In this document: piece by piece, positions 441-38,545 of the stretch
How the letters are laid out: each line of letters starts with the position of its first letter
How positions within the stretch are numbered: the stretch's first letter is position 1
Source of the DNA: Sialis fuliginosa
Taxonomy: Eukaryota > Arthropoda > Insecta > Megaloptera > Sialidae
Length of the DNA: 64,000 bases
Assembly: GCA_961205875.1 (NCBI GenBank)
Contig: OY540822.1
Location: 4,466,501-4,530,500, forward strand
Reading direction: 5' to 3'
Notes under the pieces: model-generated
What the model saw: the letters and a program-made list of their open reading frames with translations, nothing else
The model's database searches: none
Told to the model about the DNA's origin: nothing
Program-made: the position numbers and the translations under genes

Positions 441-1260
441 ATTTTCTTTTTTCCTCTTTCTTCTTCTTTCCACGTTTCTTTTTGCTTGTATTGTATGCCA
501 TTTTTTGGTTTTTCTATTAATTTTAACTTTTTTCATTTTTGTTTGATTAGGTATATGTTTTAGTTTGATTTTGTTGGTTTTTGTTCCCTTTTTTTCTCTC
601 TTTTTAAAATTTTTAAAAAATTCTTTCTAGGTTACCTTGTACTTAAAATTGACATTTAACATAGATAAGATTTTTGTTTTCCATAGATGTAATAAATATA
701 ATTAAGTTTGTAATACTAGTGCTTTTCTTTCATTGAAACACTAGTAATTTTATTTCTTTTTTCATGTTTGTATAATAAATTTGTAACTAGTTTTAAGTAA
801 AAACAATTGATGGTTCTTGTTTAATTAAGTTTTATCTTAGTATAAATACTTTTCAACATGTGATACAATGTGATACGAATTTTATTTATTTTTAACGTTT
901 TTAAACTAAATTTTTAAGTTTTAATGTTTTAAAGAAATTGTTTTTATATATTGTTTTATCTGTTGGATATCACATTTACATATTTTTAGTCTTTTGTACA
1001 AGAATGGGTACTTTTTAATATTTAAAAAAAATTTTTTTGATGTAATATGCATCTTTTACTACATACATATGGTCACACTAATTACTGTTTAAATTGTAAG
1101 TAAAAAAAATATGTTTATATCTATGAATATCTTGTTCATTTGCTTATGTTACTTACTTATGTTTATGATTTCTTATAGGGATAATTATTAATTTCTGATG
1201 AAGACAAAAATGTTGAAAATTAAAATAAGCGCTATTAATTAAAATGATTTGAACATTGGT
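441..1260 (+). other. 3' untranslated tail of the Penelope-like element, no gene
   Basis: AT-rich sequence with long T runs and no coding potential. Near its end, at 1196-1220, lies CTGATGA, a purine, GAC, a short loop, GTT and GAAA. This resembles the hammerhead core that Penelope-like elements carry near their ends, but helices I and II are only about 3 bp. I treat it as a weak candidate. Confidence 0.4.
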
Positions 1261-1349
1261 TTAGTTCTTTAATTAATATTTTGACCTAAAAAAAACCCCT
1301 ACAAAATAGGTATATTTAAATAATATCAAGATGGTCATATATATGAATA

Positions 1350-1350
<1 letters not shown>

Positions 1351-1385
<35 letters not shown>
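1351..1385. repeat. (TA)n microsatellite
   Basis: About 17 uninterrupted TA dinucleotides, preceded by the related imperfect run ATATATGAATACTAATA. Confidence 0.95.
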
Positions 1386-2217
1386 CCGATAATTTTAATA
1401 CTTTGTTATATATACGCGTAGAGGATAGAGAAGTTACGGCTATGACAGTTTTATTTAATTTCGTGGGGAAAGGTTAAATGTAGTTAATAGATTATTCGAG
1501 AAAGATCAGATTGAAAATAGATACGCGATAGCGTAGAACGCAAAAAATGTTTTTGAAGATCGTGGCCAACAAAGTGACCACAAAGATAACATTTCCACAC
1601 AAGTGCTGGTTGCCGAGGCTGGAAATACGCGAATTAGTGGATCTACGTGGCAAAATTGATACGAGGGAACTTGGTAAATGGTGGTCCGAGATCCATGCTC
1701 CCACGTTCTTAATTGACGGAACCCAGGACCCCGGAACTGCGTCCACGACTCAGCTAAACAATTTATATATTTATTTACTTTCATCATTTACTCGAACTAT
1801 AACTGTCGTGTAGTCCCCGACACGACAGAATATTATTCTACGTTCCCAAGATAACCAACATTATATGACTATTATTAGATATAGAATTATTTGATATATA
1901 GAATTTTATTTAGATTTTTTTTGTATTCTCCATTAATATGTTTATTTTCATTGTATAATTATTGTGTAAATATATGTTTAAGTTAGTAAAAAATGTCTCT
2001 TAGTACAACCGCCCCTTTTTTATAATTTCGTGATTTTATTATTATTATTATTGATAAGGTAGTTTGAAATCACGTGGCGCCCAAAAAGAAAAAAAGTCTA
2101 TTATTGTTTTGTTTTAATTATATTTTACCCCGCCCGTCTCCACTAGAGCTAGGGCACCCTACCTTTTATCACCTTCTTAATTAGGTATGTGACATCACAA
2201 CGAAACGACAGCAGTCA
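1386..2217 (+). other. Unassigned stretch, possibly BEL/Pao LTR and leader with a primer-binding-like site
   Basis: No gene is supported. TGGCGCCCAAAAAG at 2075-2088 looks like a retrotransposon primer-binding site. It lies upstream of the BEL/Pao protease remnant in the same orientation, so this stretch may hold the LTR and leader, with gag deleted. LTR ends could not be placed. An 88-codon open frame at 1547-1813 has no recognisable motif and an antisense frame of similar length, so it is not called as a gene. Confidence 0.3.
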
Positions 2218-19589: not shown

Positions 19590-22500
19590 ATCTTGTGTTT
19601 TTTTTACAAAAAGATAGGTTAGAAAATACATTATATTTCACAGAAAAGAGGAATTATGAACTAAAGAAAAGGAAACAAGAAATAAGAAGGTGCCAAAAGA
19701 TGACTTATTATTTAAAAAGAAAATTGAAGATAAGAAGAAAATCAGACGAGATATTCAAGAGAATTAATAATTTACCAGATGAAGGTCAAATTTTAATATT
19801 CCCGGGAAAAAATTTCAGATCAACACAGATCAAAACAGATCAACACAGATCTGCGTAGATCTGTGTTGATCTGCGTAGATCAACACAGATCAAAACAGAT
19901 CTGCGTAGATCGGGGATTTTATTATGTTTTTGTACACAACTTGACTTCCCACAGTAACTGGGTTCGAAGAGCAATCCTGGAGAAGAGAACCACCATATAT
20001 GTATTGTATTACCTTATTACTAACTGATCCGACTTGGCTTATATACGAATGAAAGTGAAAATACTGTGTTGGCGAGAGCTATGTTGCGATATTTATATAT
20101 TATACATACATTATAATATGTACCTACTTATTCATAAATAAACTTTTGTCTTCCTTAAATAACAAATACACATATACTGAAACCTTGTTTATAATTTAAT
20201 CAATTAAAAAAAAATTGTACAGAAACGTACTGAATGATATTTGAGGCCCGTGTATTAAATTAATAAATAAATTCACAACCCACCCCCTGTCACAGATGAA
20301 GGGTTGTAATTAGTCTCATTCGATCCAGCGGGAAAAATACTTCGGGATACCAGGGGTATGGTGGGCAAAACAACCCTCTATCTAGCACAGGAGTCGAGAT
20401 ATTTACGATTTTCTATAATGAATACCATAAGTAGCGAAACAGAGAAAAATTCAATATTTACTGTTAATACAGCATAGAAACATAAGATATTATTATTAAA
20501 TTTAATAAAATGAAAAAAAAGTCCAGACACGTATTAAGTGATATTTAAGGCCCGTATTGTTAAAATAACAAATACACATATTTTTTTAAATTGATTAAAA
20601 TACAAACAATACGTTTCAATCTCACGATCTACGACGATCTGCAATGATGTACAACGATCTACAAAGATCAACAACGATCTGTAAAGATTTACAACGATCT
20701 GCAAAGATCTACAACGATCTATAAAGATCACGATCTGCAAAGATCTGCAACGATTTACAAAGATCAATAGCGATCTACAAAGATCTGCAACGACCTACAA
20801 CGACCTACAACTATCTGCAAAGATCAACAACGATCTATTAAGATCACGATCTGCAAATATCTATAACGATCTGCAAATATCTACAACTATCTGCAAAGAC
20901 CTACAACGATCTGCAAAAATCACGATCTACAAAGATCTACAGAGACCTACAACTATCTGCAAAGACCTACAACGATCTACAAAGATCTAAAAAGATCTGA
21001 TTTGTTCCAAAATGAAGATCAACCGAGATCACTTCAGATCTGAAATTTTTTCCCGGGTTGTCTCAATTTAAAAAACCAGCCAAAAAATATAATTGGTCAT
21101 TAAAAGAAAAGGCTTTGTATCTGGCATTGTATAAAAAAAGTCTAAGATGTTATCGTTTCTTAACAAAAATATTAAAAGTTCCATCGCGCAGAACTTTATT
21201 AAGAACATTGGCAAACTTTGACATACAAACAGGCATTAATAAGAACCTATTTATTCATTTAAAATCAGTTTCTGAAAAACTACCCGATTTGGACAGATAT
21301 TGTATTTTATTGTTTGATGAAATTGCACTGAAACCTAATTTAGAATTTAGAAAAAATAATGGTGTGATCGGGCTCGTTGATTTTGGGATAAACTCATCTA
21401 GTTATATTGCAGACCATGCACTTTGTTTTATGCTTCGAGGAATTAATAAATACTGGAAGCAACCTATATAATTTTTTTTTCTCGGTCGACCACTCCCACC
21501 GAACAGTTGAAATCTTTAATCGTTGAAAATATTGAAGCCGTACACAAACACACTAATTTTATCATTTTATGTTCAGTTAGTGACCAGGCAGCTACTAATT
21601 GCTCGGCAATTAGAAAGCTTAGTAAAAATAATGATTATATTTATAAAGTTAATGAACACGAAATAATACATACATATCTTTGATCCTTCCCATTTGTTAA
21701 AATGTATTCGAAATAATTTCATGAAAATAAATATTATTTTCAATAATAAAATAGCCAAGTGGGATGATATCAGATCACTTTACGAGTTAGACGCTTTAAG
21801 CCCCGATACAAGAACTTGTTCGAAATTAACTGAAAATCACATTAATCCAGAGGGAAAATCTAAAATGAAGGTAAAATATGCAGTCGAAGTATTTAGCTAT
21901 TCTGTAGCTGCTTTAATTAAATTACTAACAAGTGTAAATGTAATCGATTCTATGGGAACCGGAGAGTTTGTTTTATTCATAGACCAAGTTTTTGATTCAT
22001 TGAATAGCATTTTAAAATCAAATAAACCTTTGAAAGGCCCCATAACCGATACATCACAACATTTAGAATTTTGGAAAAATACAAAAAATCTATTTTTTAA
22101 TACAAAATTTATTCAAAACGATGTGGCTGTTCCTTCTCCCCCTTCAGTTAAAAATTTTTTTGTAACAATAAGTAATGTAGAAAAACTTTGGGGTGTCTTT
22201 AAAAGATTAGGTTTCAAATATCTGTTAACTAGGACACTGAATCAAGATCCAATTGAAAATTTATTTGGCATAATTAGAGGCTTGTCTGGTCAAAATCTCA
22301 ATCCCACTTGTTCGCAATTCATTGCATCGTTTAAAACATCAATGTTAAATAACTTATCCTGTGTCGTAAAAGGAAATTGTCAAAATGATGACGCTGTTTT
22401 CTTAACATCCCTAACTTCGCTTTTATCCACTAATGAACCTCTGAACATTTCAACTTCTACTTCTAGTCATAACATATCAGTACGTAACATTTCGTCAATT

Positions 22501-22710
22501 ACACAAACAGCTTTTATGGAATTAGATAAATTTGCAAAAGTAGCACGCTTACAAACTAATGCATATATAGCAGGCTTTTTAATTAGGAAAATTTTAAATA
22601 ACAAGTGTGATACATGTAAAAATTTCTTATCCACTGATTGTGAGAGTATTGATGACAACATACACTTTTTTATAAAATCAAAACATTACAGAAACAAACT
22701 ATGCTACTAG
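19590..22710 (+). pseudogene. P-element-type transposase, nearly complete but split and frameshifted
   Basis: The first visible exon (from about 19610, after a TTTTTACAAAAAG acceptor-like site) gives a coiled-coil segment and NNLPDEGQILI. The frame is cut at 19801 by a GATC-array element and resumes at 21058 with SQFKKPAKKYNWSLKEKALY. The catalytic blocks of P transposases follow: LLFDEIALKPN, then ATNCSAIRKL, FDPSHLLKCIRNN, LEFWKNTKNL and QDPIENLFGIIRG, ending with AYIAGFLIRKIL and a CDTC pair. Two small frameshifts are visible, one in a poly-T run at about 21471-21481 and one near 21680. The THAP DNA-binding domain expected at the N-terminus was not seen. Function is lost, but decay is modest. 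Confidence 0.85.
19801..21057. mobile_element. GATC-array DNA element, copy 1 (1.26 kb, internally deleted)
   Basis: The ends are inverted repeats beginning CCCGGGAAAAAATTTCAG. A TT dinucleotide lies on both sides (19799-19800 and 21058-21059); removing the element and one TT restores the P-transposase frame as ILI-L-SQF. The left end has a short GATC array (19816-19912), the right end a long one (about 20622-21042) of units such as GATCTGCAAA and GATCTACAAC. Between them is AT-rich sequence shared with copy 2. Copy 2 has about 1.6 kb more in the middle, so copy 1 is a deletion derivative. No protein is encoded. Confidence 0.85.
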
Positions 22711-23249
22711 TACGTCTGGTTCGTGGCAAATAAAGCCAAAACGCTGCACTTTTTGATTGGGGTATGCCACTTTCGGTGGTCATATATAAGGTCAAAAGAA
22801 ACATTTTCAGATAGGGAGCTACTTTAAAATCTGTGTAGAACACCATTATATCGGCTATTAAAGATGGCCCTCACGGTTTTTATTAAATTGGCTGTATCTC
22901 AGCTCCTAATCATCTGATTTCAATTTCCTTTTGTTTATTTTAAAGTTCTTATTAAAAAAATAAATAGTTTTTAACATTATTCATTTTTAAATAAAAACTA
23001 ATTTTGAATAAAATCTTTGGAGGGCTGTAGCCCCCTTACGAAAAATTTCCGGACACATGTTCATATAATGTATTTTGCTTAAAATATGTCTCTTAATTTA
23101 CTGTTAAAGTTTGGCACGACAGTGCTGAATCACCCTGTATATTGAAATAAGATATATCAACAGAATGTATATTGCTGTACTGTTATTGTAATATAAGTTG
23201 TGAACGCAAGGCGTATAAGGTCCTTCGAGGAAATAAAATTATATATTGC
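22711..23249. other. No gene; possible mariner-like MITE end
   Basis: GAATCACCCTGTATA at 23130-23144 is the kind of end seen in TA-flanked insect MITEs. No partner end was found. The rest is AT-rich. Confidence 0.35.
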
Positions 23250-23617
23250 TAAGAGTTGTTGTTTCAGTTTATCCTTAAAGAAGTAACAAAAATACATGGT
23301 CCTTCGAACCGGATGGAAATTAAGAAGGTTATAAGGATTAATGAAAACGTGGTCAACACAAGGTCAGTGAAGGCAGTGAAGTTGGATGTGGATCTGACGT
23401 CACGCAACCTCAGATCGCTTCAGAGTACATCGTGGTGCGCAACATCAGATTACTTAGTGGAGCGCTGCTACGACCGCTACATGAACGAGAGTTGTAGCGC
23501 CATATTGGATTGGAAACGTCAAAAGTCAAGTGACACGTGAATTGTGCAGTGTAGTTATAAGATTTTGTAGTCTATAAGATATTTAACTGTTTACAGTTCT
23601 AAATTTTTGACTTTACA
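23250..23617 (+). other. BEL/Pao copy 2 leader
   Basis: A GC-richer stretch just upstream of gag. TGGTCCTTCGAACCGGAT at 23299 is a leader sequence I associate with BEL/Pao elements, and a related GGTCCTTCGAGG lies at 23219. LTR boundaries could not be fixed. A 94-codon frame at 23256-23540 has no gag motif and is treated as leader. Confidence 0.5.
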
Positions 23618-24788
23618 ATGGCAACCAATGATTCAGCCACGCTTATTTCAACGAGAGAAATAATTATAAACGAAATAGATTATTTATTGGAGTACGCTGA
23701 CACGTCAGCTGATTTAAGCACTGATGTAACACATTTAGAGGTTAGATTAGAGTCATTGGAGAAACACTTCAGTGATTTTGTAGCAATACAGAATACGATA
23801 GAGGTTAATTGTAAAGTCAAAGATGAGGAAGGTGTACGCAGTAGGGTACGTAATACATATTGGGATGCTAAAGCTATAATAATTGCCAAGATTCGCAGTT
23901 TATTTAGCGAACAAAGTAACATGAAACCTGCTGAGAGTGGTCAGACATGTACGAAAATAAATAATTTGAAATTACCTAAAATAATTATACCTAGTTTTAA
24001 CGGTAACTTATTAAACTGGCGTTCGTTCAAAGATTTATTTGATAAGCTTGTACACGAAAACACATCACTGTCCGATACTGAAAAATTATTTTATTTAAAA
24101 AGTTGTTTAAAAGGGGAAGCACATCAAACTATAGATTCTTTAGATTCTACAGCGGAAAATTATGTAAGAGCTTATAATATATTAGAAAAAAGATATGATA
24201 ATAGGTTAATTATGATCAATAATCATATTAAGCATATTGTAGAATTAAATGCAGTTAATAAAAATAATGCGGTTCAGATGAGAACGTTTATTAATGAATT
24301 AAATCAGCATGTTAACGCGTTGAAAGCACTCAATGTACCGATTGAACATTGGGATTTGATTCTGTTATATACATATGTTAGTTCGTAAGATGGACACAGA
24401 TGCGATACGGCTGTATGAAACAGCACGTAAAGTAAATGAATTACCTACGCTTAATGAATTTATTGAATTTAAAGAACAAAGATGTAAAATTTTAGAGTCG
24501 ATTGGTTCAAGTAGTGATTAAAAAAATCGACATGTAATAGTTTCGAACACGGTTACTGGTAAAGGGAAACATATAAATAATTGTACTTTGTGTAAGCAAC
24601 AACACATGTTGATAAAATGTGATAAATTCCTAGATTTTTCGCTAGCTCAACGACGAGATTGGGTAAGAAAGCGTAATCTATGTTATTGCTGTTTAATAGG
24701 TTCACATAGAGCAAACACATGTTCGTACGACAATGGGTGTACAAAATGTGGACAAAAGCATAATGTTTTGTTACATTTTGTTTAAATT
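23618..24788 (+). pseudogene. BEL/Pao gag, copy 2 (one frameshift and a stop)
   Basis: The frame starts at ATG 23618 with a helical N-terminus and contains LPKIIIPSFNGNLLNWRSFK, DLFDKLVHENTSLSDTEKL and FYLKSCLKGEAHQTI, the hallmark of Pao-type gag (DUF1759-like). A frameshift near 24385 moves the reading frame to VRKMDTDAIRLYET. After a stop at about 24520 a zinc-knuckle region follows (CTLCKQQHMLIKCDKF, then CYCCLIGSHRANTC and CTKCGQKHNVLLH). The sequence is cut at about 24788 by Jockey sequence. It would have formed the capsid-like shell of the retrotransposon. Confidence 0.85.
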
Positions 24789-25600
24789 TTAATTCTCTTG
24801 ACAACACCTACTATTCACATAAATTCTTAGGCATAACATACACATCGACTCTAACATTAACTGGGACACACACGTCATAAATTTAGCTAAAAAATTGAGT
24901 CAAGTCACCTTTGCGTTAAAAAAAACATCCACTATATTAACCACCGAGGCCTTAGTCATGGCTTATTATGGAATGTTTCATTCCATCTTAAATTATGGTA
25001 TTATCACTTGGGGTAACGATAAATATGCAAATACAATTTTTTTACTTAAAAAAAAGTCGTACGTATCATATCACATGCACAATTTAGAGATCACACAAAG
25101 CCACTTTTTTTTAAAACATAAGATCATGCCAGTGCCATCCCTCTACATCTACAACTGTTTACTTCATGCTAAAAAAAATAACTCATAACATAATACATGC
25201 TGACCTACACAATTATAACACAAGAAATAATTTCAAAATTGTTTTACCTCTTCATAAGAAGAGTAAAACTCAGTTCAATCATGAGTACCAATCTCTAAAA
25301 CTATACAATTGCATTCCTTTGCATATCAAAACACTAGGTTATAAAAAATTCCAAAGGTCCATTAAATATATTTTACTTGAAAACTACTTCTATTCTGTAG
25401 ATGAATTTTTCCAGTTCATGACTATTTGAAATAATTTGAATATGTATTTTAATTACTTTTATATCTCTTTTAATATACATACTTTTATATGTCTTTAATT
25501 ACTTTTATAATATTTTGTAAATTTCTTATACGTGACAATGTTACACATTGTTATTTAATGTATTAAACTGCTTATAAATAAATAAATATATCATTCCTAA
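24789..25600 (+). pseudogene. Jockey-type non-LTR retrotransposon, 3' end with tail
   Basis: Frames across this stretch read KFLGI, a thumb-region block, then LKKTSTILTTEALVMAYYG, SILNYGIITWGN and later NYNTRNNFKIVLPLHKKS, typical of the Jockey ORF2 C-terminus. The frame shifts at about 25166. After the stop at 25429 a short AT-rich 3' UTR ends in AATAAATAAATA (25577-25590). It is 5'-truncated, as usual for LINEs, and lies between BEL gag and gypsy RT. Confidence 0.8.
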
Positions 25601-26639
25601 AGGGAATACTCCTATTTTGGGTTGGAAGTGGATTGAAGAGTTAAAAATTAATTTATTCGATAAGTCAATTAATTTTGTTGATAGCAAAGAATCTATCATA
25701 CAGGAATACAAAGAAGTATTTAAATTAAGTAGTTACACAAAGGGAAAATTTTAAATAATTTTAAAAGATAACTACAAACCTATATTTTTCAGGCCTAGAC
25801 CGTTACCATATGCTTTAAAGGAGAAAGTATCCAAGGAAATTGATCGGTTAATTAAGGAAGGTATATTGAAACCTGAAGCTAGTTCAGAGTTCGGAACACC
25901 AATAGTTCCGATAATTAAAAAATATGGTTCGGTACGATTATGTAGTGATTACAAGGTAACATTGAATCCACAAATCGAAACAGATCGTTATCCAATTCCG
26001 AGAGTATCTGATTTATTAGCAACGCAACATTAAGTGGTGGTAAATTTTTTAGTAAATTAGATTTATCTCAGGCGTATCAGCAAGTGGAATTGGATGATGA
26101 GTCAAAGAAGTTGGTGAGCATCTCTACGTACAGAGGCATTTTTTCATACAATCGTCTTCCGTATGGAGTTTCCAGTGGTTATTTCAACGAGAAATAGAAA
26201 AGATATTATGTGATTTAGAAGGGGTAGTATGTTTTTATGATGATATACTGGTCACTGAAGATAAAATACAACATGAAGTGCGATTGCGGCAAGTTTTAAC
26301 AAGGTTAAAAGAAGCCGGATTGACGGTTAAATTAGAAAAATGTAAATGACAATTTTGAGGCAAATGTAAATGTTGAACCAAATGTTCAAATTGGGGAATT
26401 GTCAGAATCAAATGTGAGTATGGAAAGAGTACAGCCAGAGGATAGAGAAGGGGAAAGAAAGATTTCGGAGTCGAGTGTTGCGAATGATCTAAGTGCTACA
26501 GAACATGTTGAGTCTAACTTGGTATTGCAGAGATCACAACGGACTCGGAAAAAGCCAATCCGTTTAGATCTTTAATTTAAGTTAATTTAAAATGTTAAAA
26601 TTGAATTTTGTATATGATTTATTTTTAAGGGGAAGATGC
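25601..26639 (+). pseudogene. Ty3/gypsy pol remnant (RT plus pol C-terminal tail)
   Basis: The RT starts with RPLPYALKEKVSKEIDRLIK and continues with GILKPEASSEFGTPIVPI, KLDLSQAYQQVELD and VVCFYDDILVT, where the catalytic YDD is present. Stops and small frameshifts occur at about 25755, 26034 and 26190. At about 26350 the RT jumps to an acidic stretch ending RSQRTRKKPIRLDL, the usual last residues of gypsy pol, so RNase H and integrase have been deleted. A polypurine tract (AAGGGGAAGATGC, about 26627) precedes the LTR. Confidence 0.85.
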
Positions 26640-26832
26640 TGTAATGAATATATATATAATCTATGATAACACATCTTCTATCTATGGCGTTTAATGTAAT
26701 ATGTATTAATGTAATATGTATTCAGAACGGTACAGTACACATGAAGAAGTGTAAGTGTGCACATGTACTGACAATGTTAATGTGACAATAAAGGAAAATA
26801 AATAAAATACCAACGTGTTTTTATTCATTACA
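26640..26832 (+). mobile_element. 3' LTR of the gypsy remnant
   Basis: A 193-bp unit running TGTAATGAATA...TATTCATTACA, directly after the polypurine tract. It holds AATAAA-type signals at about 26785-26806. BEL/Pao coding sequence starts within a few bases after it, so the gypsy element was inserted in BEL pol. Confidence 0.8.
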
Positions 26833-29800
26833 GTTATTATGGATCAAGCTCCCACACTTTCAAATATAGAGCTAACTCAAACGTTTTGTTCACTAACACA
26901 ACCCGCATGAGAAACAGTAGTTCAGAATTTCTGGCAAGTTGAAGAAATTCCTGCACCCGCTGTGTTGAATCAAGAAGATGAAGAGTGTGAATGCTTATAC
27001 ACATCGACAACGTCTCGGGATACGAATGGTAGATATACGGTTTCATTACCATTTAAAAATTCCTCATCAACGTTAGGTTCTTCTTTTGAAATCGCTCTCA
27101 AACGTTTTTACATTTTGGAAAAAAAGTTATCTATTCCAGAAGAATACAGACGTCAATACAATCAGGTGATGAGCGATTATTTGGTACAAGGTCACATGAC
27201 ATTAGTTCCCAGAAGCGAAATCGAAAATAGTAAGTATTTCATTCCGCACCTCCCAGTCTTCAAGGAAAGTGAAAGTACTCCCATTAGGATAGTTTTTGAT
27301 TGTAGCATGAAAACGTCAAATACTATATCATTAAACGATAATTTGTATAGTGGCCCTAAACTGCAGACAGATGTCTTGAAAATATTGCTTAGTTTTAGAT
27401 TATTTAAATATGCATTTATTGTCGATTGCAACCAAATGTATAGAAATATTTTATTCGAAAAAAATCATAGAAAATATCAACGTATATTTTGGCGATTCTT
27501 TACAGATCAACCAGTATCTGTTTATGAATTAAATACCGCAACTTTTGGTTTAACCCCCGCACCGTATTTAGCATTACGTACGGTGAAACAACTCGCACAG
27601 GATGAAGCTACAAAATTCCCTTTAGCCTCAAAATTAGTGGTAACTGACATTTATATGGACGATGTGGTATCTAGCGTACCATCGACCAATCAAGCAATAG
27701 AATTATATCAGCAATTAGTTGGGTTGTTTAAATCTGGTTATCTTGATTTGGTTAAATGGTCAGAGAACTCTTGGATATTATCCCAAGTAATATAAAATTG
27801 TTAGACAGCGTCAAAATTGAAAACAATTCTGAAACTCATAGTTCGTTGAAGGTTTTAGGTCTACAATGAGACCCTGTTGCAGAAAACTTTTATTTCGTAG
27901 TCAATATATACAATGATGAATGTACTAAACGTAATATGCTTTCAATGATTGCTAGAATATAGGACCCCCTTGGTTATTTAGCGTTTATGGTTATTTATTT
28001 ATGGTAAGCGCAGTTGGATTGGGATCAAACGCCCCCATACAATATTCAAAAACAACGGGCGGAATTTCGTTGAGAGATTTATTTATTAGGCAATATAAAA
28101 ATTTCTCGGTATTTGGGTTTAGTGGAAAATTGTCATGTGTCAGGGTTTAGAGACACTTCACAATTGGGCTACGTAGCTGTTATTTACATAAAAGTCGAAC
28201 ATCCCTGTGGAAATGATTTTATCAATTTAGTTTGCTCAAAGTCAAAAGTAGCACCTCTAAAAACAATTTCAATCGCACGTTTAGAGTTATTAGCCACCTT
28301 GTTGTTAGCAAAGTTGATTAATTTCACCATAGACAGTTTGTTACATCGCACAAAAATAGATAGAATAGTAGCCTTAACCGATTCAACAGTACTGCTAGAC
28401 TGGATTTGTTCTTCTCCGCACACGAGAGAAGTATTTGTTGCCAACCGCATTGCAAAAATACAATCGCTTATACCGAGTGATAAGTGGTTTCACGTAGATA
28501 GTGGTAACAATATGGCAGACATAGCATCACGTGGACTAAAGCCTTCGCAATTAGTGGAAAATAGTAAATGGTTTTCTGGTTCACAATAGTTAAAAGATAA
28601 CATAGCGAACTGGCCGATAAAACTGATCGCTTCTAAAACAATCGTTTCGTTAGTTTGTGTAGAGACTAAACACGACAATGTTATTCGAGATTTAATGCAC
28701 CGAATATCATCATGGCCAAGATTGTGTAGAGTTATTATGAGGGTACTTAATTTTCAGTAAAATTATTAGCGCGCAAAATTTAGAAACAGCTGAGCTTAAA
28801 ATAATTCAATTATTGCAACAAATTCATTTTGCAGCAGAATTCACTTTGTTAGAAAAAGGTGAGCCATCTTCAGCAGCTCTGCGTCAATTGTCTTCGTTTT
28901 TAGATAACGAACTTATAAGAGTAGGTGGTCGTTTGCGAAATGCAAATCTTGAATTTGATCAACAGCACCCGCTGTTGTTACCCAAAAAGGATCATGTAGT
29001 AGATATAATAATTGATCATTTTCACAGAGTCAATTTACATACTGGCCCTCATTTACTTCACGCACTTCTTCGGCAAAAGTATTGGACCTTAGCAGCCCGG
29101 AGTGTAGTGAGACAAGGCATTCGAAAATGCAATTATTGTTTTAGGTTCCGACCAAAGCCCACCTACCCTTTAATGAGTGACTTGCCAGCAGCTAGAGTGA
29201 CAGGTATAAAACCTTTCGCATTTACTGGTGTAGATTATGGAGGTCCATTTTTTATCACACTATCAGGACATCGAGGCGTCAAATCGCAGAAGGCCTATGT
29301 ATGTTTATTTGTTTGTCAAACAACTAGAGCTTTACATTTAGAACTCGCTTCAGATTTGTCGACAGATATGTTTATAAACTGTTTTAAGCGATTTATAGCT
29401 CGATGTGGTACTATAAACACAATTTACAGTGATTGTGGTACAAACTTTGTAGGCGGTAAATCCGAATTAGACGAAATTTTTAGATTTACTCAGTCAAACC
29501 AATATCAAGATAAGTTTAGTCGTGAATTTGCCAGTCGTGGTATAAAATGGCAATTTAATCCCCCTGGGGCACCGCATGTAGGAGGTTCTTGGGAATCTCA
29601 AATCAAATGTGTCAAAACACATTTGGCAAAAGTGATTGGCTCACAAATACTGGCATTTGAAGAGTTTTCGGCCGTACTTGCACAAATAGAAGCGCTATTA
29701 CAAAATTGTCTGCTTTTTTGGATGAGTGCGTTAGATGTAAGTGAGCAATCGCAAAATAGATTAACCCACAAACAATTACTAGATCAAATGATACAAACCT

Positions 29801-29968
29801 TTTTGAAACGTTGGCACACAGAGTACCTCAATACTCTCCAAGCGCGCCAGAAATGGAATACGCCATCTTGCCAAGTTAAAGTTAGAATGTTGGTTTTAGT
29901 TTTGATTTGGCTAGGGTTAAAAATAATCCTTCATGGGCGGGGTAAATGGTTGCGCCACTTGAGATGAA
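26833..29968 (+). pseudogene. BEL/Pao pol, copy 2 (RT, RNase H, integrase)
   Basis: After LTNLTQ-like lead-in sequence and a stop at about 26910, the RT reads FWQVEEIPAP and on to 27795, with an intact YMDD active site at about 27655 (DIYMDDVV). A stop-rich joint (27796-28112) leads to RNase H at 28113-28589 (ARLELLATLLLAK, NNMADIASRGLKP). The integrase at 28813-29967 is one open frame of about 385 codons. It has the zinc domain (CNYCFRFRPKP) and core acids in FTGVDYGGPF, IYSDCGTNF and GGSWESQIK. The end drifts out of frame after LTHKQLLDQ. The RT and integrase keep their catalytic residues, so this copy is younger than copy 1, but the stops and the insertions upstream make it non-autonomous. 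It belongs with gag at 23618. Confidence 0.85.
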
Positions 29969-30416
29969 GGAAGGGTTAGGGTTTTGTTGTTTCCCTAAAT
30001 TTGGCAAAACTGCCTTATCCGGTGTACGATGCGAGTGACAGAGAGAGAAGGGACAGAGTAAGTAGATACGTGGTAGTGAGAGTGCGTATAAAAAATAATA
30101 GATAAGTGATCAACAACTTAGTGGAGTCGATTCTAGAAACATAGTGGAGTCCACAAAACATAGTCTGTCAACAACATTAATGGTGTCGAATATATGGTGG
30201 AGTCGACAGAAAATTGTGGTTGACAGAATCGCATTTCGAGTGGATAAATCAATTGACAGGATTTCGCAAAGGTTAGTGTAGTGTTAACAGTTGATTTGTT
30301 GCTATCGAACATAAAAAACTATATTACAGTCCGCTGCCTCTGCACAAATTAATACGATTTAAAATTTACAAAATTTATAATGAAATTTTTCATATTAATT
30401 AAAAATATTTTAAATA
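29969..30416. other. No gene; GTGGAGTCGA blocks
   Basis: Several related blocks (GTGGAGTCGATTC, GTGGAGTCCACA, GTGGAGTCGACAG; 30120-30215) occur in a GC-richer stretch that may be BEL/Pao 3' LTR sequence. No LTR boundary could be proved. Confidence 0.35.
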
Positions 30417-30653
30417 CAGGGTTTCTAAATACTAGGGGACAGTATGGGGATTTCGGAAACTATAAGAGATAGAGATTCGGTTAAATGAGAGAAAAGTTAC
30501 CTTTAAGAGGGGACAGTTCAATGGTGTATTTACATTACACAAAAATTTCATAGCCTACTAGATATTAGCCAAAAACCATTTTAGTCCGAATTTTTTCATC
30601 GTGAATATTTCTTAAGCGACTTGACATTTAAAAAAAATGTTTCAAATAAATGC

Positions 30654-31044
30654 TGTATGGTTTAGTATTGTCTATTAAGAAATATTTTTTTAATTTTCAG
30701 AGATCTCATAGTTTTTGAGATATGAGACTAACTTATGTTTTCTTAAATAGAAGCAATATGAAATTTTGTAATTTTTGAACAGAAGATTTTATTATATTTT
30801 CATTGATATGCAACTTGATGAACTTACCTTTCAAAATATCTCAAAAAATGATCAAAAAGTATTTTTTATTTATTTAATACACTGATCCAAATATGGCTAT
30901 GACAATCAACAATAAGATTTTAAAACAACTAAAAATTTATATATAAGCTAACATAGCATTAATTAACTATTGTATTAATAAAAAAAGACATATTTTATTT
31001 ATTTAATACACAATAAGAGCCAAAGATGGCTATGGCTATCAACA
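30654..31044 (+). mobile_element. 5' LTR of gypsy element (3' end of LTR eroded)
   Basis: Starts TGTATGGTTTAG and matches the downstream LTR from 34906 over CTCATAGTTTTTGAGATATG, CAAAATATCTCAAAAAATG and two AAGATGGCTATG blocks. Its end is shorter than the downstream LTR, and gag-side sequence (TTAGCACGGAGAACACCG) follows at once, so the LTR end and primer-binding site seem deleted. Confidence 0.75.
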
Positions 31045-31072
31045 ATTAGTTAGCACGGAGAACACCGAGTGG

Positions 31073-31690
31073 ATGGATGTATGTGAACGCTCCCTTTGTA
31101 TTAGCTATATTGTGTTAATAAATAGTATCAAGAACAAGCTAACCGACCATTTCAAGCCGAAAGTTAATACCAGTTTTGAAATTTTCAATTTTAGAAAAGC
31201 TAAACAAGAGGAGAACGAGAGCAAATACCAGTTTTATATCCGTTTAATAAAACTAAGCGCCAACTGCAAATTCGTAAACAGGGACGATGAAATAAAAGCT
31301 CAGATAATCAGTAACACCAGATCAACAAATCTGCGGCGTTTCGGATTAAGAGAAGAACCCAAGCTAGAAGTTTTATTGGAACTGGGACGACTCCTGGAAA
31401 CAATACAATTACAACTCGACGCAATCGAACAAGATAACAATGAACCAGGCCGCACAAATCGAGTCGATTTTAAAACGTTTAAGAAAAAACAAGCTGATCA
31501 TAACAAACAAAAAAACTTTTTAAATGTGCCTAACAAAACACAACGATGCAAAAACTGCGGAAATATGTGGCATCAAAAAGGCAGACAAATATGCCCAGCA
31601 TTTAATGTTACTTGCTTAACGTGCGAAAAACGTGGTCATTTTTGAAGGTGTGCCTAAGCAAACAATCAAACAAAAGAAAATAAACCACGC
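31073..31690 (+). pseudogene. Ty3/gypsy gag
   Basis: An open frame 31073-31645 holds a capsid-like segment (FNFRKAKQEENESKYQFYIR, then LIKLSANCKF) and two zinc knuckles (CKNCGNMWHQKGRQIC and CLTCEKRGHF). A stop interrupts the second knuckle just before RCA. In this element type gag makes the virus-like particle and binds RNA. A related gag piece lies at 38960-39260. Confidence 0.8.
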
Positions 31691-31773
31691 GCAAATTTCA
31701 CCAAAGTGCTGAAACGGCTAAAACAATTAGTTCGGACTCCGATAACTCTTTTAAACTCACGACAAACAGTTTA

Positions 31774-32289
31774 GTGAAAACACCTAAAACTTCACTTACG
31801 TTAAATGACAATTATATGAGTTTCATTATAGACACCGGTAGCAGTGTGAATATCATCAGTTCCTCATGTTTAAAACACATGATTAACAAACCAAGTGTCA
31901 TGTGTGTATACACAAAAATTTATCCATATAATTCTAACGAAGCGCTACCAATAGCGGGGAGTTTTAGGGGTGTTTTTAAATATAAACATCAAGTTACTAC
32001 AGACGAAGTGTTCATCTTAGAAGACGAAGCTGAACCTTTGCTGAGTTTCAAACAAGCAAGTGCGTTAAACATAGTTCACATAACACAAGTTTTGGACACA
32101 TTACCAACAATCATAAACATTGAATGGGTGAAAAATAACATTCCAGCTTTAACAAACGGTATCGGAAATTTAACGAATTTTGAAGTGCATTTACTCATTA
32201 ACAAAGAGATGCGTAGCTCAAAAACACAGACGGATTCTCTTTCATCTACGAGCAAGAGTCGAGGCAGAATTAAAACGTTTGGAAGATGA
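31774..32289 (+). CDS. Ty3/gypsy protease region (partial pol)
   Basis: The open frame has a retropepsin motif, FIIDTGSSVNIIS, near its start, and a downstream strand with ALPIAGSFRGVF. It ends 110 bp inside the RT frame that starts at about 32180, so the two overlap in different frames. Either this marks a small frameshift or pol reading depends on it. It would process Gag-Pol. Confidence 0.75.
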   Translation: MKTPKTSLTLNDNYMSFIIDTGSSVNIISSSCLKHMINKPSVMCVYTKIYPYNSNEALPIAGSFRGVFKYKHQVTTDEVFILEDEAEPLLSFKQASALNIVHITQVLDTLPTIINIEWVKNNIPALTNGIGNLTNFEVHLLINKEMRSSKTQTDSLSSTSKSRGRIKTFGR

Positions 32290-33335
32290 AAATATAATAG
32301 AAATGGCAAACGGGGCAACTCTTTGGGTTTCACCAATCGTCATCGTACCTAAACCTCACAACCTTGAAGTAATTCAGATGTGTGTAGATATGCGCGTTCC
32401 AAACAAAGCAATCAAACGAGAAAGACATGTCACGCCAACAATCGACGATATCATTTTGCAATTAAACGGTGCGGTCTTATTTAGCAAAATAGATCTTAAA
32501 GATGGATATCATCAGTTGACACTGGATAAGGATTCACGTTTCATAACAACCTTTTCAACTCATTGCGGTTTGTATCGTTACAAACTTTTAAATTTCGGTG
32601 TGAATACAGCAGCTGAAATTTTCCAAGACACAATTCGTCAAGTACTAGCTAACATACCAGGTGTCCTAAATATGGTTGACGATATTCTCGTTTTTGGAAA
32701 ATCAAAACAAGAACATGATGAAGCTCTATTAGCAGTGTTAAAACGACTCAGTTAACGTAACCTAACAGTTAACGGAAACAAGTGTGCGTTCAGTCAGAAC
32801 GAAGTAACATTTTTCGGTTTCGTGGGATAAAACCAGATCCCAAGAAAGTAGAAGTTTTCAAAAAATTGGAACCTCCTACAAACGCATCAGAAGTAAGAAG
32901 TCTTTTAGGATTGCTAAATTACGTTGGAAAATTTCTTCCAAATCTGGCATCAGCAACAAAACCGTTGCGAGAGTTGATACTTAAAAACGCGGAATGGAAC
33001 TGGAAACAAGTCCTAGAATCGAAAGATTAATTCTCAAAATTCAGCAACATAACTATGTGGTAGTACATCAAAAAGGAGCCACGAATCCATCAGATTATTT
33101 CTCAAGACATCCTTTACAAACCAATCAGAAACAAGATTGCAAAATCGAGAATTTTGTGAATTTTATAATTCAAAACAGCATACCAAATGCAATGTCAGTG
33201 AACGAAGTTCGAGCAGAAACCGTGACTGACAGAACATTAGCAGAACTGTTGGAAGTAATCCAAGAGAATCACCCAAGTTTATGGAACAACCCGAACTTAA
33301 AATCATTTAACTCATCAAAAATGAACTGTCAGTAA
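32180..33335 (+). pseudogene. Ty3/gypsy reverse transcriptase and RNase H remnant
   Basis: RT blocks are RVEAELKRLEDENIIEMANG, WVSPIVIVPKP, KIDLKDGYHQLTLDKDSR, and an active site reading NMVDDILVFGK, where methionine stands in place of the usual tyrosine or phenylalanine. A stop at 32755 is followed by the connection segment (KCAFSQNEVTFFGF, PDPKKVEVFKKLEPPTNASE). At about 33000 the RNase H domain is largely deleted: the sequence jumps to VVHQKGATNPSDYFSRHP, its C-terminal motif. The frame then changes again at 33335. RT could have been functional once, but this copy cannot complete replication. Confidence 0.85.
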
Positions 33336-34731
33336 AAGATAGCGTTATTCTACGAGGCAGTAGACTGATTTTACCGTCCAAGCTACAACAGAGAGCAGTC
33401 GATTTAACTCACAAAGGACATCAAGGTATTGTCAAAACAAAACAATTAATACGAACTGTAAGATACCTAAGCTAGAGATTTTTAAATGTTAGGGTTTGGG
33501 GATAACAATGAAGAGTGTGACAAGATTATATGTATTTGAAATATGTGGTTGTTGACAAGTTATAAAAAGAAATGTAATAATGAGAATTAGAAGATAAGAG
33601 AATAAAGGTTTCTATTAAACATATAAGAGTTATTATTCAACCTTAATATGTTACACGAACAAAACTTTGGTTCCCAAATATCGATAAAATTGTAGAGGAC
33701 ACCATCAAAAACTATCTTGCTTGTCAATCGGTAACACAAACGCATAATCGTGATCCTATTATGCTAGGGAAAACGGCAACAGAACCTTTTGAGAGAGCAG
33801 CGATCGATTTCGCTGGTCCATTCCCAAATAACAAGTATATCTTGGTTTGAGTCGATGAATACACAAAATACCCAAGTGTGGAAGTTATTAACTCAACAAA
33901 TTTTTAAAATATATATAATGTTTTGTAAAAGATATTCAGAACGTTTGGCATCATTAAAAAAAATTAAATCTGACAGCGGCCCTCCTTTCAACGGTAGAGA
34001 TTTTGAACAGTTCGCGAAGAACTACAATTTCAAACATCACAAGGTAACACCCTATTGGCCAGAAGCAAACGGTCAAGCAGAACGATTTGTTGAAACACTA
34101 AGCAAATCCCTGTGTTGCAGTAATCTAGAAGACAACAACTTTACAGCACAGCTAAATTTGTTGTTAATGAATTATGTATCGACACCACATCCAGCAACAA
34201 AACAGTCACCATACGAGTTGCTGTTTAATCACAAAATGAATAATATTCTACCAAGTCTTGAATCAACAGAAGAAAAAAAGGAAAGTCATTTCAAACAACA
34301 ACGCCAAACTTCAAAATAAACAGTACGCTGATAAACGAAGACACACAAGAACTCATACTCTGAAAGTAGGTGATCTAGTTTTATGCAAACAAAATAAAAC
34401 TAACAAACTAACGACAGCTTTCGATTCACCACCTTACATAATAACCAAGATCAGAGGCACCAAAATATTTGCAAAGAGAGGAAATGAAGTCAAAATAAGG
34501 AACGCATCATTTTTCAAGAAGATAAGTGAACATTGCAAATTTTCAGGAAATGCTCGAAGTCCATCAACACACAGCGAAGGTGATGTCCTACAGCACGGTC
34601 GAGCACTTTTAACTGAAACCGCTGAGAATGACCTCACGCCGAACAACACCCTTGATACACCAGTGTCACGTCCAAGACGTGAAAGAAAAACACCTGCACA
34701 TCTCGAAGACTACGTAATGTACAAAGTGTGA
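33336..34731 (+). pseudogene. Ty3/gypsy integrase and pol C-terminus
   Basis: The zinc domain reads HKGHQGIVKTKQLIR before the solo LTR and WFPNIDKIVEDTIKNYLACQ after it. The core carries FERAAIDFAGPFP (first acid), IKSDSGPPFNG (second acid) and YWPEANGQAERFVE (glutamate), so the catalytic triad is visible. A stop lies in YILV-VDEYTKYP at about 33850, with frame changes near 33910 and 34260. The last piece (34258-34731) holds HTLKVGDLVLCKQNK and ends PRRERKTPAHLEDYV, the usual basic end of gypsy pol. A polypurine-like GGGAGGAATG (about 34898) precedes the 3' LTR. Confidence 0.85.
33457..33655. mobile_element. Solo LTR inside gypsy integrase, perfect 5-bp target duplication
   Basis: A 199-bp unit TGTAAGATACC...AATATGTTACA flanked by CGAAC on both sides (33452-33456, 33656-33660). 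Removing it and one CGAAC restores the integrase N-terminal frame (QLIRTKLWFPN). It is a different LTR family from the host gypsy element. Confidence 0.9.
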
Positions 34732-34905
34732 GCGTGTAAGTGAAAACCTATGGCCTGTAATATATTTAAAGCAAAGTGTTAATTTAAAATAATTAGGCTA
34801 AGCACATTATTACTCATATCTTAAGTTGTTTTGTTAAAAAAAAATCAATGTAAATTATGAACAAACATTTATGTAATGTATTCTAACTTTAAAGTATGGG
34901 AGGAA

Positions 34906-35384
34906 TGTAGTGTCCAGTAATTGTCTATTTAGAAATATTTTTTTAATTTTCAGATATCTCATAGTTTTTGAGATATGATACTAACTTATGTTTTCTTAAT
35001 ATAAATAAAAGCAATATGAAATTTTGTAATTTTTGAACAGAAGATTTATTTACCTTATCAATGATATGCAACTTGATGAACTTACTTTTCAAAATATCTC
35101 AAAAAATGATCAAAAAGTATTTTTTATTTATTTAATACACTGTATGATCCAAAGATGGCTATGACAATCAACAATAAGATTTTAAAACAACTAAAAATTT
35201 ACTTATAAGCTAACATAGCATGAATTAACTATTGTATTAATACATATTTTATTTATTAAATACACAATACCAGCCAAAGATGGCTATGGCTATCAGCAAT
35301 AAGATATTAAATTAACTTATAAAAAACGTGATTAGTAATTAATTGTATTCATAAAAATAATTAAAATTTCAGTTGTTTTTAAAT
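34906..35384 (+). mobile_element. 3' LTR of gypsy element
   Basis: Starts TGTAGTGTCCAG and matches the 5' LTR at 30654 onward. It contains two tandem blocks of about 120-130 bp, each with AAGATGGCTATG. The right boundary is placed only roughly, before the MITE arm sequence starts at about 35385. Confidence 0.7.
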
Positions 35385-35522
35385 CCTGAAACATTTTTTT
35401 AAAAGTAATATTCACGATGGAAAAATTCGGACTAAAATGGTTTTTGGCTAATATCTAGTAGGCTATGAAATTTTTGTGTAATGTAAATACACCATTGAAC
35501 TGTCCCCTCTTAAAGGTAACTT

Positions 35523-38466
35523 CCCGGGAAAAAATTTCAGATCTGAAGTGATCTCGGTTGATCTTCATTTTGGAACAAATCAGATCTTTTTAGATCTTTG
35601 TAGATCGTTGTAGGTCTTTGCAGATAGTTGTAGGTCTCTGTAGATCTTTGAAGATCGTGATCTTTGCAGATCGTTGTAGATCGTTGTAGGTCTTTGCAGA
35701 TAGTTGTAGATATTTGCAGATCGTTATAGATCTTTGCAGATCGTGATCTTAATAGATTGTTGTAGATCTTTGCAGATAGTTGTAGGTCGTTGTAGGTCGT
35801 TGCAGATCTTTGTAGATCGCTATTGATCTTTGTAGATCGTTGCAGATCTTTGCAGATCGTGATCTTTATAGATCGTTGTAGATCTATGCAGATCGTTGTA
35901 AATCTTTACAGATCGTTGTTGATCTTTGTAGATCGTTGTACATCTTTGCAGATCGTCGTAGATCGTGAGATTGAAACGTATTGTTTGTATTTTAAACAAT
36001 TTAAAAAAATATGTGTATTTGTTATTTTAACAATACGGGCCTTAAATATCACTTAATACGTGTCTGGACTTTTTTTTCATTTTATTAAATTTAATAATAA
36101 TATCTTATGTTTCTATGCTGTATTAACAGTAAATATTGAATTTTTCTCTGTTTCGCTACTTATGGTATTCATTATAGAAAATCGTAAATATCTCGACTCC
36201 TGTGCTAGATAGAGGGTTGTTTTGCCCCCCACACCCCTAGTATCCCGAAGTATTTTTCCCGCTGGATCGAATGAGACCAATTACAACCCTTCATCTATGA
36301 CAGAGGGTGAGTTGTGAATTTATTTATTAATTTAATACACGGGCCTCAAATATCATTCAATATGTTTCTGTACAATTTTTTTTTAATTGATTAAATTATA
36401 AACAAGGTTTCTATATAGTATATGTGTATTTGTTATTTAAGGTAGACAAAAGTTTATTTATGAATAAGTACATATTATTATGTATCTATAATATATGAAT
36501 ATCGCAACATAGCTCTCGCCAACACAGTATTTTCACTTTCATTCGTATATATAAGCCAAGTCGGATCAGTTAGTAATAAGGTAATACAATACATATATGG
36601 TGGTTCTCTTCTCCAGGATTGCTCTTCGAACCCAGTTACTGCGGGAAGTCAAGCTGTGTGTTGTGAGAGGTCAAATAGGTACACCCCTCAGAATTCAATT
36701 TAAATATAAATAAGGACTTAGATTCTTCTTAAAAGGAAAAAGTTTGTTTAAATACCACTGAATATTTGTAACACACAAAAAAAACAATCCAGATATATTA
36801 GTGGGGATAGACTTGTGAAGGTGTCGGGGAGAAAGGGGTGAAGTGCAAAAACTGAGTAAGAACGCGTTTGGTTTAGTCGTTTTGAGGGAGTCGTATTAAG
36901 GGAGTCGTCGTTTGTAAGGAGTTGTTGGGGAGAGTTGATGAAAGATTGATATATGAAGTTCGTTATAGTTTGATAATGGGAGTTTGAATATTTAAAACAA
37001 AGGTATAGAAAAAAGTATATTGAAAAAGTGAATTAAAGTGTTAAAAATAATAGTTATGATAAGATAAAAAAGAAGCAACGCAGCGAATTTAAGAATAGAA
37101 GAGATATACCAAAGTTTAAAACGGCATAAAGAATAAATAAAGTATTTAGTGTATGAAGAAAGTGAAAATAAGAAATAGTGAATAAAGTAAATGTTAAACA
37201 AAAAGGAAATCGACGAGGAGAGATTAATAAATAAATAAATTTAAACAATAAAATAGCATCGATAAAAAGTAGTGGGAAAGAAAGAGAAGATCTGAAATGT
37301 AAATGAGTGCAACAGAAATAAACAATATAAAAAAGTATAACGAATAAAATATATGACAATAGAAAAAGTTATTTAAAACAATAAAACTACGTAAAGTGGG
37401 AAAACATGAAATAACATTGAAATAAAGAAGTTTTAAAATAAATAATAACAAATAAAAGATTAAATTATCCATCATCAACAAATTTAAACAGTTAAACAAA
37501 TAATATAAATAAATAAAAATAAAGACTAACCAATTATATGTTAATAAATAATATTACAGTGAATTTAAATAAAATCATCGAAATTATTTAACAAGAAGCA
37601 TAAAATAAAACAACGAAAGACAATAAATAAAATAAATAAAAGACAATTGTTACAAATAAAAGAAGTTATTTGAATATGTGTGAGAGAGGTGAACAGTGAC
37701 AGTACGCAAAGTATAAGTTAGACAAAGATAGACATATAGCGAAGGCGGAACAGTGGTCCAGTACCAGAATTTCAATTTACAATTAATTCTACATAATAAT
37801 GAAAAATTTGGAAAAATGAAAATAAAGGTTAACTTCTGAAATTAAGATAAGTGGTTTTAGATTTAAGAATTTAGTTTTAAGATTTTGTATTGAAAAAGAA
37901 AGATTTTGTTTAAAAAAAAAAAAAAGAAAAGAAATAATAAATATAAAGTAAAGGTTGTGAAAGGATTTGAATGAAAGATTTAGATTTTAGATACAAAAGG
38001 ATTTAGTATAAGGATATTATTTTTATATGTGTATTTTTTTGAGTTTATGAAATTTTTCAACAATAAAATAAATTCAGTTCATGAAATATTCTCACTTTTT
38101 TATTTCACAAATCCACAAACTTTAATAATAATTCTTATTCTAATAATTTATTTTGTAATTGCGGGAAATCTAGATTTTGAGTTGACATCAATGATTATTA
38201 TATCATACCCTAGGAATAGGAACATTACAGTGTGTATGTACAAAAACATAATAAAATCCCCGATCTACGCAGATCTGTTTTGATCTGTGTTGATCTACGC
38301 AGATCAAAACAGATCTACGTAGATCTGTATTGATCTGTGTTGATCTACACAGATCAATACAGATCTGTGTTGATCTGCGTTGATATGTTCCAAAATGGAG
38401 ATCAAAACAGATCTGTAAAAATGCAGATCTGATTTGATCACTTTAGATCTGAAATTTTTTCCCGGG
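35523..38466. mobile_element. GATC-array DNA element, copy 2 (2.94 kb, longest copy)
   Basis: Same termini as copy 1 (CCCGGGAAAAAATTTCAG inverted) and the same TT target duplication: the uninterrupted target at 30490-30515 has four T where the insertion flanks together have six. The orientation is opposite to copy 1. The left array (about 35540-35970) is built of units such as AGATCTTTGC and AGATCGTTGT. The right array (about 38258-38460) is built of GATCTGTGTT and GATCTACGCA types. Both have a period of about 10 bp. The middle has 600 bp shared with copy 1, then a segment of about 1.6 kb (36650-38240) absent from copy 1, purine-rich on the + strand and without a convincing gene. Confidence 0.85.
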
Positions 38467-38545
38467 TTTTCTCTCATTTAACCGAATCTCTATCTCTTAG
38501 TTTCCGAAATCCCCATATTGTCCCCTGGTATTTAGACACCCTGTA

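What the first reader, a model, noticed from the sequence alone, without database searches (positions are those of the whole stretch)
19801..38466. A DNA element family with CCCGGG termini and TT target duplication, proved twice in one window
Copies at 19801-21057 and 35523-38466 share inverted ends CCCGGGAAAAAATTTCAG. For copy 1, removing the element plus one TT restores a P-transposase frame. For copy 2, the other arm of the same MITE (30490-30515) shows the empty site with two fewer T. A TT dinucleotide duplication and SmaI-site ends do not fit any superfamily I know well (TA for mariner, TTAA for piggyBac, 8 bp for hAT and P). It may be a new group of non-autonomous elements.
Basis: partly seen in the sequence, partly recalled or inferred. 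Interest (0 to 1): 0.8.

Follow-up and report, generated by a model that had tools for sequence, protein, structure and literature searches.

The report
Non-autonomous CACTA-type transposons, CCCGGG ends
The two copies belong to a young, high-copy family of insect-genome DNA transposons that duplicate two target bases of varying sequence (not specifically TT), and they fit the known animal branch of the CACTA transposons rather than a new superfamily.

Summary
The two elements are real: exact 18-bp inverted ends at 19801-21057 and 35523-38466, each flanked by TT; an empty site confirms a 2-base duplication for copy 2. TT as a rule fails. In the source genome (392 Mb), 42 of 47 distinct copies with both ends have a 2-bp duplication, of nine dinucleotides (TA 15, AT 8, TT 8, others 11), in a palindromic target TNTAAC|TA|GTTANA. 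A second, long family starts with the same 13 bases (CCCGGGAAAAAAT) and also duplicates 2 bp (39 of 43 pairs). One member, 15.9 kb, flanked by CA/CA, encloses the only full-length match in this genome to an intact Transposase_21 (CACTA) transposase. CCC-initial ends, 2-bp repeats and Transposase_21 are what DeMarco et al. 2006 reported for animal CACTA relatives (TRC). So: new families of non-autonomous TRC-type CACTA elements, a known kind. Not settled: no window-family copy with a transposase was found; its link to the enzyme rests on 13 shared bases, duplication length and architecture, and a nested insertion in the 15.9-kb copy is not excluded.

The parts
19801..21057 (.). Copy 1, 1257 bp, no transposase frame
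   Evidence: ends exact; TT on both sides; frames listed
19799..19800 (.). target duplication TT, left of copy 1
21058..21059 (.). target duplication TT, right of copy 1
19816..19901 (.). Copy 1, short subterminal array, 10/20-bp units holding GATC
   Evidence: Tandem Repeats Finder
20624..20999 (.). Copy 1, long subterminal array, 38.7 units of 10 bp
   Evidence: Tandem Repeats Finder
35523..38466 (.). Copy 2, 2944 bp; its first 1137 bp match copy 1 in reverse at 96%
   Evidence: ends exact; TT on both sides
35521..35522 (.). target duplication TT, left of copy 2
38467..38468 (.). target duplication TT, right of copy 2
35582..35968 (.). Copy 2, long subterminal array, 39.5 units of 10 bp
38262..38388 (.). 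Copy 2, short subterminal array
30480..30519 (-). Empty site of copy 2 in another arm of the same host repeat
   Evidence: flanks joined minus 2 bases match; 0, 1, 3, 4 do not
19652..19800 (+). 5' part of the P-type transposase frame that copy 1 interrupts (where I began reading; it may start earlier)
21060..21468 (+). continuation of the P-type transposase frame behind copy 1, to the first stop

Best explanation
The window copies are non-autonomous DNA transposons of the animal branch of the CACTA (En/Spm) superfamily, the TRC type with CCC-initial ends. A Transposase_21 enzyme supplied in trans binds the subterminal 10-20 bp repeats and the ends, cuts the element out and inserts it at cuts staggered by 2 bp, preferring the palindrome TNTAAC|TA|GTTANA; gap repair gives the 2-bp duplication. 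Shown: the ends, the 2-bp duplication, the target preference, the copy number, and a transposase between ends with the same first 13 bases in the same genome. Inferred: that this or a sister enzyme moves the window family, and that the repeats are its binding sites.
For: Family size: 720+763 ends with up to 2 mismatches, reversed-pattern control 7+8; the 41-bp A end has 406+422 matches with up to 3 mismatches, and the first 100 listed are exact, so it looks young. Duplication: 42 of 47 distinct copies at 2 bp; 1 of 47 at 3, 1 at 4, 0 at 5 or 8. Target palindrome: summed information 2.00 (n = 42) against a maximum of 0.45 in 1000 offset controls. Subterminal 10/20-bp arrays, as described for CACTA in PMC8978399 (passages). 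Second family: 96 ends, 39 of 43 pairs with identical flanking dinucleotides, against 215 of 1806 (11.9%) when mispaired. Its 15,896-bp copy C14:1728185-1744080, CA/CA, encloses P0001, which matches PF02992 Transposase_21, E 1.6e-09, is open over 826 codons, and has D281, D369, C388, C391, H466 and E526 invariant among 9 aligned proteins; it is the only full-length match among 13. A tandem array of an 86-bp unit lies inside that end. Animal TRC elements: CCC-initial ends, 2-bp repeats, Transposase_21 (PMC1636069, passages).
Against: No window-family copy with a transposase was found: nine CACTA transposases matched only L069 and L070 among the window and all loci fetched, and these loci are a sample of contig C1. 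The window family and the 15.9-kb element share 13 bp plus architecture. The long family shares only its first part with L070: of 39 other places scored, 36 start at base 1 and stop at 693-976 (40 of 4218 candidates scored). None of the 41 pairs holds a P0001 match; 15,896 minus about 5,780 leaves about 10.1 kb, so the gene could sit in a nested insertion. The part of that copy beyond C14:1737400 was not read. 5 of 47 and 4 of 43 pairs lack a matching 2-bp duplication. In PMC1636069 the 2-bp repeat was seen in 7 of 14 Schistosoma copies, and CMCT elements mostly end CA..TG (PMC12730594, passages).
Confidence: 0.82

Rival explanations
1. PHIS superfamily (ISL2EU or a relative), which also includes 2-bp duplications.
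For: ISL2EU has a 2-bp duplication (PMC4482050, passages); PF13359 transposases are common here, 146 matches.
Against: ISL2EU duplicates AT in A|AT|T and its ends usually start GG; here AT is 8 of 42 and the start is CCC. On C1 up to 36.7 Mb, 0 of 10 PF13359 matches lie within 9 kb of a listed exact end (distances by eye). 0 of 146 lie inside the 41 long-family pairs or the 15.9-kb copy. Only 150 of 189 candidates were scored, and ends beyond C1 36.7 Mb were not listed.
Confidence: 0.07
2. The CCCGGG families are a separate lineage with an unrecognised transposase carried by the elements of about 5.78 kb; the CACTA gene at C14:1.73 Mb is a passenger or nested element.
For: 41 left-right pairs, 15 of them at 5.70-5.86 kb and only one shorter (3.77 kb), look like an intact family; none holds a P0001 match, and PF02992 has only two matches in the genome.
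Against: CCC start, 2-bp duplication, subterminal arrays and the enclosed Transposase_21 gene all agree with animal CACTA; that non-autonomous CACTA copies may share only their ends is recalled knowledge.
Confidence: 0.1
3. Tc1/mariner-type element with TA duplication and mutated flanks.
For: TA is the commonest dinucleotide, 15 of 42.
Against: 27 of 42 exact duplications are not TA although both sides agree; 27 of 39 in the long family likewise.
Confidence: 0.01

Closest known systems
Animal TRC elements (SmTRC1 of Schistosoma mansoni; elements of Aedes aegypti and Tribolium castaneum), DeMarco et al. 2006, PMC1636069 (passages read)
   Same: CCC-initial ends, 2-bp direct repeats at the ends, Transposase_21, a region of tandem repeats in SmTRC1
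   Different: ends continue differently (CCCTAGTAGC... in Tribolium, CCCAGTCAAC in Aedes, against CCCGGGAAAAAAT); the window copies carry no transposase
CMC-NA MITEs of polydnaviruses and wasps, PMC6004678 (passages read)
   Same: non-autonomous, 2-bp duplication, found in wasps
   Different: those end CAC..GTG
Plant CACTA (Jozin), PMC8978399 (passages read)
   Same: subterminal 10-20 bp repeats, Transposase_21
   Different: CACTA core motif and 3-bp duplication
ISL2EU (PHIS), PMC4482050 (passages read)
   Same: 2-bp duplication
   Different: AT only, ends usually GG-initial, DDE with THAP

Membership tests
Animal CACTA / TRC (CMC) | ends begin CCC | tested here: met
Animal CACTA / TRC (CMC) | 2-bp target duplication of variable sequence | tested here: met
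   42 of 47 distinct copies; long family 39 of 43
Animal CACTA / TRC (CMC) | Transposase_21 transposase between the ends | tested here: inconclusive
   absent from the window-family copies fetched; present between ends with the same first 13 bp at C14:1728185-1744080
Animal CACTA / TRC (CMC) | subterminal short repeats | tested here: met
Plant CACTA proper | CACTA core motif and 3-bp duplication | tested here: not met
ISL2EU (PHIS) | AT duplication | tested here: not met
   AT 8 of 42
ISL2EU (PHIS) | DDE_Tnp_4 transposase between the ends | tested here: inconclusive
   0 of 10 PF13359 matches on C1 up to 36.7 Mb near a listed end, 0 of 146 inside the long-family pairs; interiors not read
Tc1/mariner | TA duplication | tested here: not met
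   TA 15 of 42
Named Repbase family | match to a named consensus | not testable with these tools
   Repbase not held; a text search for CCCGGGAAAAAA listed 9 papers, none on transposons by title (listing only)

The most novel reading that the evidence does not exclude
The CCCGGG families form their own transposon lineage: the roughly 40 long copies, many of near-constant 5.78 kb, encode an unrecognised transposase that makes 2-bp duplications in a palindromic 14-bp target, and the CACTA gene is only a passenger.
Probability: 0.1. Interest if true: 0.6.

Novelty: new member of a known kind. Interest (0 to 1): 0.3.

Why it matters
It gives a large, young data set for a 2006 suggestion made on three species, that animal CACTA relatives start with CCC and duplicate 2 bp, and adds a target-site preference measured on 42 insertions. 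For annotators it means that a CCC..GGG end pair with a 2-bp duplication in an insect should be tried as CACTA/EnSpm before being called new. The families look recent (many exact 31- and 41-bp ends), and one open 826-codon transposase frame is a concrete candidate for the active enzyme.

Tried and rejected
Rejected: TT as the rule. PHIS/ISL2EU by duplication, ends and positions. Plavaka: PF18759 found nothing in the genome, but no control genome rang either, so this says little. Long window-family copies as autonomous elements: L025 and L048 hold a nested 2.3-kb palindrome, L028 a nested element with a 196-aa frame without a significant Pfam match, L041 LTR-retrotransposon-like frames (type recalled). 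20 ends that looked unpaired in the exact listing, with about 8 kb on the inner side: 10 of 20 turned out paired with up to 2 mismatches; frames of 150 codons or more were seen in 3 of 20 (L050, L061, L067), none CACTA-like. L069, the other PF02992 locus, has no CCCGGG in 9 kb. A candidate right end of L070 at 8225 (2 mismatches) was dropped because its flank did not match; the matching one appeared. Ends CCCGGGAAAAAAT followed by A or C: 41, scattered over 14 contigs, control 1+4, none near a P0001 match by eye. Viral contigs: nothing for P0001 or for the end pattern. The target logo was out of register by two bases and was redone. The protein step failed and was repeated. Searches scored 40 of 4218 and 40 of 4108 candidates; one search found, apart from L070 itself, only a repeat of about 170 bp, so 'interior not shared' holds for the scored candidates only. 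The search for the L028 protein and for a long B end did not complete.
Full report
Observation. The window lies in a 392-Mb genome of 20 contigs (G000:C14:4466501-4530500). Copy 1 (1257 bp) and copy 2 (2944 bp) are each flanked by TT. For copy 2, joining the flanks reproduces the empty arm only if exactly two bases are removed; 0, 1, 3 and 4 fail. For copy 1, removing two bases of the right flank keeps a frame open for 186 residues (five bases, the same frame, 185), while 0, 1, 3, 4 and 6 stop at 52-64; the 186 residues hold a P-type RNase H domain, PF21787, E 1.3e-20.

Is TT the rule? No. The end occurs 720+763 times with up to two mismatches, the reversed control 7+8 times; ends preceded by TT, without mismatch, number 61+63. 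I fetched 60 stretches of contig C1 around exact ends listed, so the sample is one contig plus the window and leans to intact copies. Of 49 pairs, 47 have distinct flanks; 42 of 47 carry an exact 2-bp duplication: TA 15, AT 8, TT 8, AA 3, TG 3, TC 2, CA, CT and AG one each. The five without are L025, L028, L035, L041 and L058; L025, L028 and L041 contain other elements. In an earlier subset of 39 pairs, mispaired flanks agreed in 287 of 1482 comparisons (19%) against 35 of 39 true pairs. The target is palindromic, TNTAAC|TA|GTTANA, with summed information 2.00 against at most 0.45 in 1000 offset controls.

Anatomy. The largest length class is about 700 bp (19 of 47 copies at 673-704 bp), followed by 1257-1406 bp (11 of 47). 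The one 700-bp copy examined is nearly palindromic, its two 300-bp halves 95% alike (L010). Longer copies such as those of the window have subterminal arrays of 10/20-bp units holding GATC, about 39 units on one side and fewer on the other. The 41-bp A end has 406+422 matches with up to 3 mismatches, and the first 100 listed are exact, so the family looks young. I saw no transposase frame in the fetched window-family copies that is not part of another element nested in them; frames were judged by eye except for CACTA, which was searched.

Which superfamily? PF13359 transposases (PHIS) are common (146 matches), but 0 of the 10 on C1 up to 36.7 Mb lie within 9 kb of a listed exact end (distances by eye; the nearest is 9.4 kb from an end that points away). 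PF02992 (Transposase_21, CACTA) has two matches only. One of them, L070, has CCCGGGAAAAAAT 1.6 kb from an 826-codon open frame (P0001), which Pfam assigns to Transposase_21 (E 1.6e-09). Among its 66 relatives the named ones are mostly from parasitoid wasps (Cotesia, Microplitis, Chelonus), ants and thrips, with one rotifer. Aligned with seven of these and the L069 frame, invariant residues include D281, D369, a C-x2-C pair at 388/391, H466 and E526; which of them are catalytic is inferred from the motifs described for this group (PMC12730594, passages).

The long family. A pattern search with the L070 end gave 92 ends, of which 41 pairs lie in left-right order, 3.8 to 12.9 kb apart, 15 of them at 5.70-5.86 kb. 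A second search that prints the two flanking bases gave 96 ends and 43 pairs; in 39 of 43 the dinucleotides agree, against 215 of 1806 when mispaired. One pair is C14:1728185-1744080, 15,896 bp, CA on both sides; it encloses P0001 at C14:1729833-1732310, the only full-length match of P0001 in the genome (13 matches in all; the other 12 lie outside every pair). A tandem array of an 86-bp unit lies inside its left end. So ends that begin CCCGGGAAAAAAT, with a 2-bp duplication and subterminal repeats, enclose a CACTA transposase. The window family has the same 13 bases, the same duplication length and the same plan.

Limits. Outside L070 itself, one search scored 39 places: 36 begin at L070's first base and stop at 693-976. 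The L070 stretch from there to C14:1736000 is single-copy apart from a repeat of about 170 bp, among the 40 of 4108 candidates scored. This fits one autonomous element with non-autonomous families that share its ends, but it would also fit a CACTA insertion of about 10 kb nested in a 5.78-kb copy. I could not read the right part of that element or any 5.78-kb copy. P0001 may not be the enzyme that moves the window family.

Known or new? DeMarco et al. 2006 (PMC1636069, passages read) describe animal CACTA relatives (TRC) with CCC-initial ends in Schistosoma, Aedes and Tribolium, 2-bp direct repeats at their ends (7 of 14 copies in Schistosoma) and Transposase_21, and suggest a CCC core for animals. 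CMC MITEs of wasps and polydnaviruses have a 2-bp duplication but CAC ends (PMC6004678, passages). The present families are therefore new members of a known kind. A text search for CCCGGGAAAAAA listed 9 papers, none on transposons by title (listing only); Repbase itself could not be searched.

Noticed in passing
L028:4009-5900 (C1 about 31.656 Mb): A nested palindromic element with ends GCCCGGTCAAA..TTTGACCGGGC between TA and TA, holding a 196-aa frame with no significant Pfam match.
   Followed up: partly
L025 (element coordinates 957-3281) and L048 (element coordinates 577-2900): A 2.3-kb nearly perfect palindrome starting CACTCACGGAAAAAATTAAAGGACC sits in two window-family copies at different places.
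   Followed up: partly
G000:C11:617202-617768 and C11:624918-626792: A fragment of the long family's left-end block (96% over L070 query 95-659) lies about 7 kb from another CACTA-like open frame (933 codons, 31% to P0001), but in an orientation that points away from it.
   Followed up: no
L063, L064, L065 (C1 31.03, 31.12, 31.16 Mb): Three copies within 130 kb have the same end flanks, which points to duplication of the stretch after insertion.
   Followed up: no
L070:6029-6197: An interspersed repeat of about 170 bp, with 39 other places among the scored candidates, lies inside the 15.9-kb element.
   Followed up: no
window 12735-14723: A 662-codon open frame that looks like a pogo/Tigger-type transposase (type recalled, not tested).
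   Followed up: no
window 2662-4655, 23603-29967, 31007-32289, 61591-63595: Retrotransposon-like frames of BEL/Pao and Gypsy kinds (types recalled, not tested).
   Followed up: no
window 36690-38200: Copy 2 carries about 1.5 kb of A+T-rich DNA between its short subterminal array and its core that copy 1 lacks; origin not tested.
   Followed up: no
G000:C12:91309-92421: Two left ends of the long family with the variant CCCGGGAATTAATGATAA, 1.1 kb apart in the same orientation: a variant lineage or a tandem duplication.
   Followed up: no
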